Assembly: GCA_030590585.1 (NCBI GenBank) | Contig: JAUUYD010000156.1 | Span: 1 to 6,106, forward strand | Reading direction: 5' to 3' | From: Spirochaeta sp. | GTDB lineage: Bacteria > Spirochaetota > Spirochaetia > Spirochaetales_E > Spirochaetaceae_B | DNA length: 6,106 bases | In this document: positions 4,740 to 5,305 of the stretch, in pieces | Numbering within the stretch: the stretch's first letter is position 1 | Layout of the letters: the number at the start of each line of letters is the position of its first letter | Notes under the pieces: model-generated | Seen by the model: the letters and a program-made list of their open reading frames with translations, nothing else | What the model was told of the DNA's origin: nothing | The model's database searches: none | Position numbers and translations under genes: made by a program

Positions 4740-4768
4740 TTGACCCCCATCCACAAACCAAATAAAAT
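4740..4768 (+). promoter_or_regulatory. Sigma-70-type promoter of the tRNA operon
   Basis: TTGACC (4740-4745, five of six) and TAAAAT (4763-4768, five of six) are separated by exactly 17 bases. The expected start is about 4775, a few bases before tRNA-Pro at 4781. This is the best promoter in the window, and lies in the divergent gap between nth and the tRNA. Confidence 0.8.
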
Positions 4769-4780
4769 GCTGATTCACTG

Positions 4781-4853
4781 CGGAATGTAGCCCAGCGGCT
4801 AGGGCACCTGCTTTGGGAGCAGGAGATCGGAGGTTCGAGTCCTCTCATTCCGA
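4781..4853 (+). tRNA. tRNA-Pro (anticodon TGG)
   Basis: A complete cloverleaf of 73 nt: acceptor CGGAATG/CATTCCG, D stem GCCC/GGGC, anticodon stem CCTGC/GCAGG with loop TTTGGGA (anticodon TGG at 4814-4816), T stem GGAGG/CCTCT with loop TTCGAGT, and discriminator A at 4853. The first acceptor pair C-G and A73 are identity marks of bacterial tRNA-Pro. CCA is not encoded and must be added by nucleotidyltransferase. The last 23 bases (4831-4853) recur exactly at 5018-5040. Confidence 0.97.
4831..4853 (+). repeat. Direct repeat 1, tRNA-Pro 3' end (native copy)
   Basis: These 23 bases, covering the end of the T stem through the discriminator base, are repeated without mismatch at 5018-5040, 187 bases downstream. 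The flanking bases differ on both sides, so the match is bounded at both ends. Confidence 0.95.
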
Positions 4854-4858
4854 ATAAA

Positions 4859-5040
4859 ACATCCTGCTTATCGGGATTCATTGTACCTGGTTATTGGTCT
4901 CGGAGGGCTCGAAGCTCCGGAACGAGCGCCGAGCTGAGGCGAGGATCAGGCAACAGGATGTTGCCGGAAGCGAGTGGAGGCGGCCTGGAAGGAGTCAACA
5001 GGATGTTGACGACTGAAAGGTTCGAGTCCTCTCATTCCGA
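4859..5040 (+). ncRNA. Candidate structured RNA element A (tRNA-Pro-linked, CsrB-like hairpins)
   Basis: This spacer between the two tRNAs has no coding sense but strong structure. Hairpin 0 is CTCGG-agg-GCTCG (4899-4911) paired to CGAGC-g-CCGAG (4923-4933), with an 11-base loop ending GGAA. Hairpin 1 (4949-4965) is GGCAAC-AGGAT-GTTGCC. A GGA-rich linker follows (4976-4992). Hairpin 2 (4994-5010) is GTCAAC-AGGAT-GTTGAC. The element ends in a 23-base copy of the tRNA-Pro 3' end. Both pentaloop hairpins display CAGGATG, the CsrB-type CsrA-binding repeat. Lying between a promoter and a terminator, with a tRNA on each side, it should be transcribed and could be cut out by 3'-tRNA processing and RNase P as a fragment of about 4854-5046. 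AACATCCTG (4858-4866) is complementary to CAGGATGTT in both hairpins. The role is inferred. Confidence 0.7.
5018..5040 (+). repeat. Direct repeat 1, second copy of tRNA-Pro 3' end
   Basis: Exact 23-base copy of 4831-4853, the T-loop and 3' acceptor strand of tRNA-Pro, without any 5' tRNA half of its own. It could pair with the acceptor 5' strand of tRNA-Pro in place of the native copy. It ends six bases before tRNA-Arg. Confidence 0.95.
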
Positions 5041-5046
5041 TATCGA

Positions 5047-5120
5047 GCGCTCATAGCTCAGCTGGATAGAGCATCGGCCTTCTAAGCCGAGGGTCGCAGG
5101 TTCGAGTCCTGCTGAGCGTA
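5047..5120 (+). tRNA. tRNA-Arg (anticodon TCT)
   Basis: A complete cloverleaf of 74 nt: acceptor GCGCTCA/TGAGCGT (first pair G-T wobble), D stem GCTC/GAGC, anticodon stem TCGGC/GCCGA with loop CTTCTAA (anticodon TCT at 5081-5083, reading AGA/AGG codons), T stem GCAGG/CCTGC with loop TTCGAGT, and A at 5120. CCA is not encoded. It is probably cotranscribed with tRNA-Pro and ends directly at a terminator. A copy of its 3' end lies at 5284-5299 and an inverted, diverged copy at 5159-5180. Confidence 0.97.
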
Positions 5121-5154
5121 AAAAAAGGGAGCTCATCAGAGCTCCTTTTTTTTT
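5120..5154 (+). terminator. Strong intrinsic terminator after tRNA-Arg, likely bidirectional
   Basis: GGAGCTC (5128-5134), loop ATCA, GAGCTCC (5139-5145), then nine T. A run of A (5120-5126) on the left side extends the stem and supplies a U-tract for minus-strand transcripts, so it may also end readthrough from the short-chain dehydrogenase gene at 5306-5959. Confidence 0.93.
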
Positions 5155-5158
5155 ACTC

Positions 5159-5180
5159 TCTGCTCAGCAGAACTTGAACC
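5159..5180 (-). repeat. Inverted diverged copy of the tRNA-Arg 3' end
   Basis: On the minus strand this matches the 3' end of tRNA-Arg (5099-5120) at 18 of 22 positions, including nine contiguous bases CTGCTGAGC. It lies just past the terminator and faces the direct copy at 5284-5299, with which much of it can pair to close a long stem around element B. Confidence 0.75.
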
Positions 5181-5283
5181 GAATTCCCGGCGCGAATACT
5201 TGGAGCGCAAACCGACAGGATGTCGGGTTAGGGACGAAGGCGGCCCGGAAGGTGCCGACAGGAAGTCGGCATCTGAAGGGCGG

Positions 5284-5299
5284 GTCCTGCTGAGCGTAA
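5284..5299 (+). repeat. Direct repeat 2, copy of tRNA-Arg 3' end
   Basis: Sixteen bases identical to 5106-5121, the 3' acceptor region of tRNA-Arg plus the next base, 178 bases downstream of the original. The T-loop part further left is recognisable but diverged, so this copy looks older than the one after tRNA-Pro. Confidence 0.85.
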
Positions 5300-5305
5300 C
5301 AAGGT

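What the first reader, a model, noticed from the sequence alone, without database searches (positions are those of the whole stretch)
4859..5299. Two homologous non-coding elements, each downstream of a tRNA, with covarying hairpins and conserved AGGAW loops
Elements A and B share hairpin order, spacing and a 17-nt linker (15 of 17 identical). Hairpin 2 stems are GTCAAC/GTTGAC in A and GCCGAC/GTCGGC in B: two base pairs changed with compensation while the pentaloop stayed AGGAT or AGGAA. Hairpin 1 also differs in stem and keeps its AGGAT loop. This is what selection on RNA structure produces. I do not know a named RNA family matching this tRNA-linked layout, though one may exist (two-hairpin GGA-loop motifs have been described computationally).
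Basis: partly seen in the sequence, partly recalled or inferred. Interest (0 to 1): 0.88.

Follow-up and report, generated by a model that had tools for sequence, protein, structure and literature searches.

The report
Spirochaete tRNA-linked repeats with CsrA-type hairpins
Behind many tRNA genes of some spirochaete bacteria sits a small structured RNA element that ends in a copy of that tRNA's own tail and displays hairpin loops of the kind that trap the global regulator CsrA; it is a far-off version of a little-understood E. coli repeat class and may tie that regulator to tRNA production.

Summary
Elements A and B are real, homologous and larger than reported. Each lies downstream of a tRNA (Pro, Arg), ends in a direct copy of that tRNA's own 3' end and starts with an inverted copy of its T-arm; the two close a stem around the hairpins. 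A covariance model found 4-13 copies in each of 7 seed spirochaete genomes and hits in 20 of 198 genomes of the phylum; 27 of 28 pairs show compensatory changes over 95 copies. In 81 of 88 copies tested, the own upstream tRNA's 3' end matches better than any other-isotype tRNA of the set (median exact copy 18 nt). That is the hallmark of E. coli 'tRNA-linked repeats' (TLRs, including RtT), so a named kind exists, though no Rfam family matches the window elements. Loops are mostly A(N)GGAX closed by C-G, the CsrA/RsmE target (H1 104 of 120, H2 84 of 120). In E. coli, CsrA binding is shown only for rRNA-operon TLRs; 19 tRNA-operon TLRs are predicted not to bind. Best explanation: tRNA-coupled RNAs that bind CsrA. 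RNA structure is near certain; CsrA binding is inferred (about 0.65). Unresolved: how copies acquire tRNA-specific ends, and a predicted alternative fold that invades the tRNA.

The parts
4740..4768 (+). sigma-70-type promoter-like site (TTGACC-17-TAAAAT) just before tRNA-Pro; possible start of the transcript carrying tRNA-Pro and element A
   Evidence: 10 of 12 consensus bases; 1 found, 0.3 expected in shuffles. Consensus match only.
4781..4853 (+). tRNA-Pro (TGG)
4902..5040 (+). Element A, tRNA-linked repeat of tRNA-Pro
   Evidence: model R1 118.4 bits over 4902-5031 (A is among R1's seeds); 3' end copy
4902..4915 (+). A: inverted copy of the tRNA-Pro T-arm; holds the 5' strand of closing stem P1 (4905-4910)
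   Evidence: near-identical relative L003 reads GGAGGACTCGAACCTCC there
4929..4944 (+). A: hairpin H0 (CCGAGC-UGAG-GCGAGG, reads as tandem G.A pairs between G-C pairs)
   Evidence: H0 cells paired 91.3% in 95 copies but only 66.7% in the 8 seeds; B's counterpart 5191-5206 breaks the pairs
4949..4965 (+). A: hairpin H1, loop AGGAU closed by C-G
4983..5021 (+). A: stem P3 (4983-4986 with 5018-5021) and purine-rich internal loops carrying hairpin H2 (4994-5010), loop AGGAU
5018..5040 (+). A: direct copy of the tRNA-Pro 3' end, 23 of 23 identical; holds the P1 3' strand (5024-5029)
5047..5120 (+). tRNA-Arg (TCT)
5127..5153 (+). terminator-like A-tract/GC stem/T-tract between tRNA-Arg and element B
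   Evidence: read from sequence; the consensus scan lists the site only on the other strand, probably because A-T pairs extend the stem through the T-tract on this one
5162..5302 (+). Element B, tRNA-linked repeat of tRNA-Arg
   Evidence: model R1 104.7 bits over 5167-5289 (B is among R1's seeds); fold z-score -4.87 for 5160-5299
5162..5180 (+). B: inverted copy of the tRNA-Arg 3' end (T-arm and acceptor), P1 5' strand
   Evidence: 19 nt, 89% complementary to 5099-5117
5210..5229 (+). B: hairpin H1, loop AGGAU
5254..5270 (+). B: hairpin H2, loop AGGAA, inside P3 (3' strand 5278-5281)
5281..5302 (+). B: direct copy of the tRNA-Arg 3' end, 91% over 22 nt; holds the P1 3' strand (5282-5287)

Best explanation
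A and B are spirochaete tRNA-linked repeats (TLRs): structured, non-coding RNAs made as the 3' tail of a tRNA transcript, in about half of the copies apparently only by read-through of an intrinsic terminator. The tRNA-like 3' end (a copy of the upstream tRNA from the T-loop to its end) closes a stem with an inverted T-arm copy at the 5' side and probably sets the RNA's 3' end through tRNA-type processing. H1 and H2 show A(N)GGAX loops closed by C-G, one or two CsrA sites per RNA. The RNA most likely binds CsrA dimers and lowers free CsrA in step with tRNA transcription. Shown here: the architecture, covariation, tRNA linkage, tRNA-specific ends and loop consensus. Inferred: transcription, processing, CsrA binding and the regulatory effect.
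For: Covariation in 27 of 28 pairs over 95 copies and 15 of 28 in 8 seeds. 91 of 145 copies have a same-strand tRNA ending within 100 nt upstream, over 17 isotypes. The own tRNA's 3' end beats every other-isotype tRNA of the set in 81 of 88; median exact copy 18 nt, equal to the 18-19 bp that marks E. coli TLRs (PMC8144298, passages). Of 120 copies, A(N)GGAX loops closed by C-G occur in H1 of 104, in H2 of 84, in both of 73 and in at least one of 115, while nearly every stem pair is free to change. A(N)GGAX on a C-G closed stem is what RsmE binds in the RsmZ stem-loops; hexaloop ANGGAX is high affinity and the pentaloop without N is lower (PMC4005645, passages). csrA is in 24 of 26 carrier genomes. 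The E. coli TLR RrB, which binds CsrA in vitro with Kd around 100 nM and shows no shift when three GGAs are changed (PMC8144298, passages), contains GGGC-AGGAC-GCCC after CGGCCCGGAGGGTG, close to B's CGGCCCGGAAGGTG and H2; 1 of 500 shuffles of RrB reaches that alignment score. G.U outnumbers A.C 46 to 19 in the stems, as expected for RNA of this strand.
Against: No expression or binding data for any spirochaete copy. csrA is near universal in the phylum sample (189 of 198), so its presence tells little. In the family of G005, 5 of 39 genomes show no csrA; all 5 carry the element, and H1 keeps GGA in 15 of 15 distinct copies read from four of them and in 10 of 10 of G005. FliM is found in three of the five, so these may be real losses, although assembly gaps are possible (G002 has csrA but no FliM hit). 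22 of 120 H2 loops are AHGAN, without GGA. AGGAX pentaloops, the weaker class, are the commonest. E. coli's 19 tRNA-operon TLRs scored below 0.01 as CsrA binders. CsrA does not explain the tRNA-copy ends, H0 or the P3 internal loops. A does not align to RrB above shuffles (371 of 500 reach it). Folding energies of single copies are mixed: of six elements or parts folded, z ranged from -4.16 to -0.31 (the last is part of E. coli RtT).
Confidence: 0.62

Rival explanations
1. Selfish or non-autonomous mobile DNA. The element inserts at the T-loop of tRNA genes, and the 3' copy is an attachment-site duplication like those left by tRNA-integrating elements; the hairpins are recognised as DNA or serve replication.
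For: Of 72 copies with an exact 3' copy of 12 nt or more, 52 begin at the same T-loop place (C-R-A-N-Y-C). 17 isotypes are used. Nearest neighbours sit at another tRNA of the same genome in 36 of 111 copies against 5.6 expected, so copies spread or are homogenised within genomes. Tandem arrays of 189 and 194 nt occur.
Against: Nearest neighbours are also at the same tRNA in other genomes in 15 of 111 against 4.3 expected, so some sites are inherited vertically. The 5' inverted copy is tRNA-specific too (own tRNA best in 45 of 88, top 5% in 67 of 88), which insertion alone does not make. G.U over A.C and apparent tandem G.A pairs suit RNA. No transposase or integrase gene was seen among the window ORFs (read by eye).
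Confidence: 0.15
2. Cis-acting precursor switch. The inverted T-arm invades the upstream tRNA's T-arm, and the distal 3' copy takes over the acceptor 5' strand, giving two exclusive folds that control tRNA maturation or signal its failure.
For: Predicted precursors gain a median 7.1 kcal/mol from tRNA-element pairing against 0.7 with a tRNA of another isotype (more than 5 kcal/mol in 65 against 7 of 89); in 72 of 89 the MFE pairs at least 5 of the 7 acceptor 5' bases beyond the tRNA (element A shown). GAA next to P1 is kept in 83 of 95 copies though unpaired in the element; it is complementary to UUC 54-56 of the tRNA.
Against: Folding energies ignore tRNA tertiary contacts, modifications and co-transcriptional folding order. 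Direct and inverted copies give such alternatives for free. In 45 of 91 copies a terminator-like site lies between tRNA and element, so many transcripts may never hold both parts. In the window's B the MFE leaves the first acceptor bases unpaired rather than swapped.
Confidence: 0.13
3. Spacer or processing debris: a by-product of unequal recombination in tRNA operons, its 3' tRNA copy merely serving processing or termination.
For: Tandem duplications occur; in E. coli the 3' copy of RrB was suggested to be an RNase E recognition site; deleting rrA, rrB and rrF had modest effects.
Against: Strong covariation and loop conservation across divergent genomes.
Confidence: 0.1

Closest known systems
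E. coli tRNA-linked repeats (TLRs; Egan & Landy 1978, Rudd 1999, both as cited in PMC8144298)
   Same: Immediately downstream of a tRNA (or rRNA) gene; 18-19 nt of the 3' end identical to that gene's 3' end; tandem copies; several loci per genome. Of 20 E. coli tRNAs that I tested at six loci, five (argV, argZ, argQ, tyrT, tyrV) have such a copy (18 of 18) in non-tRNA sequence behind them; the other 18-of-18 hits are simply the next tRNA gene.
   Different: Another phylum; up to 22 model hits in a genome (G240) and 17 isotypes; most copies have A(N)GGAX hairpins, whereas E. coli tRNA-operon TLRs are predicted by that paper not to be CsrA binders.
RtT / rttR (Rfam RF00391), the tyrT member of the TLRs
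   Same: Closing stem between an inverted and a direct tRNA 3' end; a GAGCGAAAGCGAG-type hairpin; H1; junction in the T-loop. With filters off, model R2's four best of 21 hits in the tyrTV locus overlap the four RtT copies, three of them in the expected register (9.4-12.5 bits).
   Different: RF00391 does not match the window; RtT H1 has no GGA loop; R2 scores are weak (E 0.016-0.1); R1 with default filters gave no hit there at E up to 10.
RrA/RrB/RrF, TLRs between two terminators behind 5S rRNA in E. coli
   Same: CsrA-binding RNA made by read-through of a first terminator; AGGAC loop on a C-G closed stem; linker like B's.
   Different: rRNA-linked; 3' copy from 5S; R2's 15.8-bit hit is not in the expected register.
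CsrB/CsrC/RsmZ-type CsrA-sequestering sRNAs
   Same: GGA hairpins; A(N)GGAX loops closed by C-G as in RsmZ.
   Different: Two sites per RNA; no own promoter seen between 4854 and 5400; tRNA-like 3' end; many genomic copies.
TwoAYGGAY motif (PMC2864571)
   Same: By its name, two hairpins with AYGGAY loops, which falls inside ANGGAX.
   Different: No match in the window or the seed loci; the one passage I saw, a table row, names no tRNA link.

Membership tests
tRNA-linked repeats (TLR) | lies directly downstream of a tRNA or rRNA gene, same strand | tested here: met
   2 of 2 in the window; 91 of 145 copies within 100 nt, 118 of 145 at any distance in the fetched stretch; of the 54 others, 27 have a tRNA further up and 15 have under 150 nt of upstream sequence
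tRNA-linked repeats (TLR) | 3' end carries 18-19 nt identical to the upstream gene's 3' end | tested here: met
   A 23 of 23, B 91% of 22; family median 18 nt exact, n = 88, with 7 of 88 having none of 8 nt or more
tRNA-linked repeats (TLR) | sequence homology with E. coli TLRs | tested here: inconclusive
   RtT copies are the top four R2 hits in tyrTV but weak; arg-operon TLRs appear only at background scores or out of register; B aligns with RrB (1 of 500 shuffles), A does not
tRNA-linked repeats (TLR) | transcribed with the tRNA and processed | not testable with these tools
   no RNA data held
RtT (RF00391) | match to the Rfam covariance model | tested here: not met
   no match at E up to 1 in the window or in 7 loci
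TwoAYGGAY | match to its Rfam model | tested here: not met
   no match at E up to 1; that this Rfam copy holds the family was not checked
CsrA-sequestering sRNA | several A(N)GGAX loops on C-G closed stems | tested here: met
   H1 104 of 120, H2 84 of 120, both 73 of 120
CsrA-sequestering sRNA | host encodes CsrA | tested here: met
   24 of 26 carrier genomes incl. G002, which holds the near-identical relative L003; 34 of 39 in the family of G005, the 5 without it all carrying the element; the window's own genome is not held
CsrA-sequestering sRNA | binds CsrA and relieves its targets | not testable with these tools
   experiment needed

The most novel reading that the evidence does not exclude
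Each copy is a two-state tail. When the upstream tRNA folds and matures, the distal copy pairs with the inverted arm and the GGA hairpins are released as a CsrA-binding RNA. When tRNA folding or processing fails, the inverted arm captures the tRNA T-arm and the distal copy becomes the acceptor end. Several to a score of such tails on many isotypes would let a spirochaete report tRNA output to CsrA.
Probability: 0.1. Interest if true: 0.88.

Novelty: new variant of a known kind. Interest (0 to 1): 0.64.

Why it matters
[quoted passage not shown] Evidence for CsrA binding in E. coli is limited there to the three rRNA-linked copies. A family in a distant phylum, most of whose tRNA-linked copies carry CsrA-type loops, suggests that CsrA binding may be common in this class, and gives a covariance model and test cases. 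It would also add spirochaete candidates for RNAs that bind CsrA; the listings of my searches showed no paper on tRNA-linked repeats in spirochaetes.

Tried and rejected
Own-genome search: no genome is held for the window, so relatives were used. Viral pattern scan: one hit, L001, a phage-type contig without tRNA in the stretch held, rejected as chance. Of the 10 genome hits, three (L004, L006, L007) read as one protein-coding stretch, by eye metK, and were dropped; R2 finds nothing at E up to 0.01 in those three genomes. Controls: phylum of the Paenibacillus locus 1 of 199 (28.5 bits, no tRNA at the locus); phylum of the Sulfurovum locus 0 of 150. These searches and those scored only 17-23 candidates per genome, so all these counts are lower bounds. 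No Pseudomonadota genome could be searched with the model beyond the E. coli stretches fetched.

Seed bias: the scan pattern demanded ACAGGANGT twice, so loop conservation in the seeds is built in. The loop counts come from model hits; a copy scoring 60 bits or more should survive the loss of the loop score (my estimate, not computed), but some bias may remain. R2 was trained on R1 hits, so one search's loop counts (GGA in H1 of 54 of 54, H2 of 46 of 54 distinct pairs) are not independent. 20 of 145 elements without two ordinary hairpins and 5 redundant ones were left out of the 120. L009 copies and the near-copies L003B and L008b were left out of the R1 seeds.

CsrA presence/absence as a test: uninformative, because csrA is almost universal. 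Upstream anti-hairpin AACATCCTG of A as a general feature: 1 of 91, rejected. Terminator-like sites after the element: 35 of 86, no control run. The Rfam hit Plastid-ycf2 (27.1 bits, below gathering 65.7) is antisense to the tRNA and was disregarded. E. coli locus L169 was a misplaced fetch (23S only).

Full report
Observation. The window carries tRNA-Pro(TGG) 4781-4853 and tRNA-Arg(TCT) 5047-5120. B folds far better than its shuffles (z -4.87), as does 4930-5040 of A (z -3.30), but 4854-4990 of A does not (z -1.18). Rfam finds only the tRNAs, plus one sub-threshold antisense match.

Finding relatives. The window's genome is not held. One pattern scan over the genome collection gave 10 loci; 7 are titled as spirochaetes, among them L003, a near-identical relative with both tRNAs and both elements, and three read as one protein-coding stretch and were dropped. 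Eight sequences (both window elements and six from those loci) were aligned and given a hand-read structure: closing stem P1, hairpin H0, hairpin H1, and stem P3 with internal loops carrying H2. Already there 15 of 28 pairs have changes on both sides and 94% of cells pair, H0 being the weakest helix at 66.7%. The model R1 finds 4, 13, 4, 13, 10, 9 and 4 copies at E up to 0.01 in the seven seed genomes and hits in 20 of 198 genomes of the phylum with strict filters. 95 hits gave R2: 27 of 28 pairs covary, 95.2% of cells pair, no shuffle comes close, and sliding the partners destroys it. That alignment is fitted to the structure and so leans towards it; the MAFFT seed alignment was not model-fitted. 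R2 hits 27 of 39 genomes in the family of G005, up to 22 copies in one, and 20 of 198 in the phylum at E 1e-5, but 1 of 199 and 0 of 150 in two other phyla.

tRNA linkage. After removing duplicates there are 145 copies. 118 have a same-strand tRNA upstream in the fetched stretch and 91 within 100 nt, over 17 isotypes. Of the other 54, 27 have a tRNA further up (tandem arrays among them) and 15 have under 150 nt of upstream sequence in the stretch. For the 88 copies with a tRNA within 90 nt and at least 40 nt after the element, the own tRNA's 3' end beats all other-isotype tRNAs of the set in 81; the inverted T-arm at the 5' side is best for the own tRNA in 45 and in the top 5% in 67. The longest exact 3' copy has median 18 nt; 7 of 88 have none of 8 nt or more; of the 72 with 12 nt or more, 52 begin at C-R-A-N-Y-C of the T-loop. 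In 45 of 91 a terminator-like site lies between tRNA and element, against 5 in one shuffle of each gap.

Loops. Over 120 non-redundant copies with two ordinary hairpins, H1 loops are AGGAN in 56 and ANGGAN in 53; H2 loops are AGGAN in 78, ANGGAN in 8 and AHGAN in 22; a GGA in at least one loop is present in 118. Counting A(N)GGAX and a C-G closing pair together gives H1 104, H2 84, both 73, at least one 115 of 120. The pairs below change freely. The structural literature on Csr/Rsm proteins describes A(N)GGAX on a stem closed by C-G (next pair U-A or G-C in RsmZ), the hexaloop high in affinity and the pentaloop without N lower (PMC4005645, passages). csrA is present in 24 of 26 carriers, but also in 189 of 198 genomes of the phylum sample, so that adds little. 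Five of 39 genomes in one family show no csrA, yet carry the element with GGA kept in H1: 15 of 15 distinct copies read from four of them and 10 of 10 in G005. FliM, used as a check on completeness, is found in three of those five, not in two, and not in G002, which has csrA, so these absences are not secure; still they count against CsrA as the only reason for the loops.

What is known. The layout is that of E. coli tRNA-linked repeats: 22 copies at ten loci, with 18-19 bp of the 3' end identical to the upstream gene's 3' end, and no known function. Three of them, RrA, RrB and RrF behind 5S rRNA, are made by read-through of a first terminator and interact with CsrA and Hfq in vitro, while the 19 in tRNA operons score below 0.01 as CsrA binders (PMC8144298, passages). 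RtT is the tyrT member; [quoted passage not shown] RtT-family RNAs near Asn and Lys tRNAs have been reported in Actinobacillus (PMC4986893, passages). I checked E. coli directly at six loci: 5 of 20 tRNAs tested (argV, argZ, argQ, tyrT, tyrV) have an 18 of 18 copy in non-tRNA sequence behind them. RtT shares with the spirochaete element the inverted tRNA end, a GAGCGAAAGCGAG-type hairpin and the T-loop junction. With filters off, R2's four best of 21 hits in that locus overlap the four RtT copies, three in the expected register, but at only 9.4-12.5 bits; R1 with default filters found none. RrB has a GGGC-AGGAC-GCCC hairpin after CGGCCCGGAGGGTG; B aligns to it with a score that 1 of 500 shuffles reaches, A does not stand out (371 of 500). 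Common descent with E. coli TLRs is therefore suggested, not proven; membership in the kind rests on the layout.

Mechanism. The best-supported reading is a structured RNA produced as the tail of tRNA transcripts, with a tRNA-like 3' end and one or two CsrA sites. It would lower free CsrA in proportion to tRNA transcription. Only architecture, covariation, linkage and loop consensus are shown. Two facts are not explained by this: the ends are specific to each tRNA on both sides, and the precursor's predicted MFE fold prefers an alternative in which the inverted arm pairs with the tRNA T-arm and the distal copy takes the acceptor 5' strand (72 of 89; median gain 7.1 kcal/mol against 0.7 with swapped tRNAs). 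Element A shows it; in B the MFE has the invaded T-arm but leaves the first acceptor bases unpaired. A GAA strip beside P1, kept in 83 of 95 copies and unpaired inside the element, would fit such invasion.

Spread. Excluding copies at the same tRNA of the same genome, a copy's nearest neighbour is at another tRNA of the same genome in 36 of 111 (5.6 expected) and at the same tRNA of another genome in 15 of 111 (4.3 expected): both vertical inheritance and within-genome spread or homogenisation occur. Tandem arrays of 189 and 194 nt units are present.

Verdict. Real, structured and conserved; a new variant of a known but obscure kind. The CsrA connection is plausible and cheaply testable.

Noticed in passing
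L010 67-139: Group II intron-like match (RF00029, 34.3 bits, below the gathering score) ending just before the 5' edge of an element copy (140 onward), as if an intron had inserted in front of it.
   Followed up: no
L026 1276-1477, L075 872-1073 (minus), L085 728-926 (minus): Three copies carry an insert of roughly 75 nt in the loop of H1, similar to one another.
   Followed up: no
window 4858-4866: AACATCCTG upstream of A is complementary to CAGGATGTT in A's own H1 and H2; the one copy among 91 tested that has such a complement is the A counterpart in G002.
   Followed up: partly
L170 (E. coli NC_000913.3 2817200-2819400): The serV-argVYZQ operon, with three TLR-type 3' copies, lies directly downstream of csrA on the same strand.
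   Followed up: no
L001 790-1696: Viral contig with many TTACA...TGTAA palindromes around its small genes.
   Followed up: no
L005 5954-6232 (minus): In a relative with, by eye, the same downstream gene, the place of B holds two copies, one of them shortened to a single hairpin.
   Followed up: partly
L190 3768-3891: Marginal R2 hit (20.1 bits) in a viral contig.
   Followed up: no
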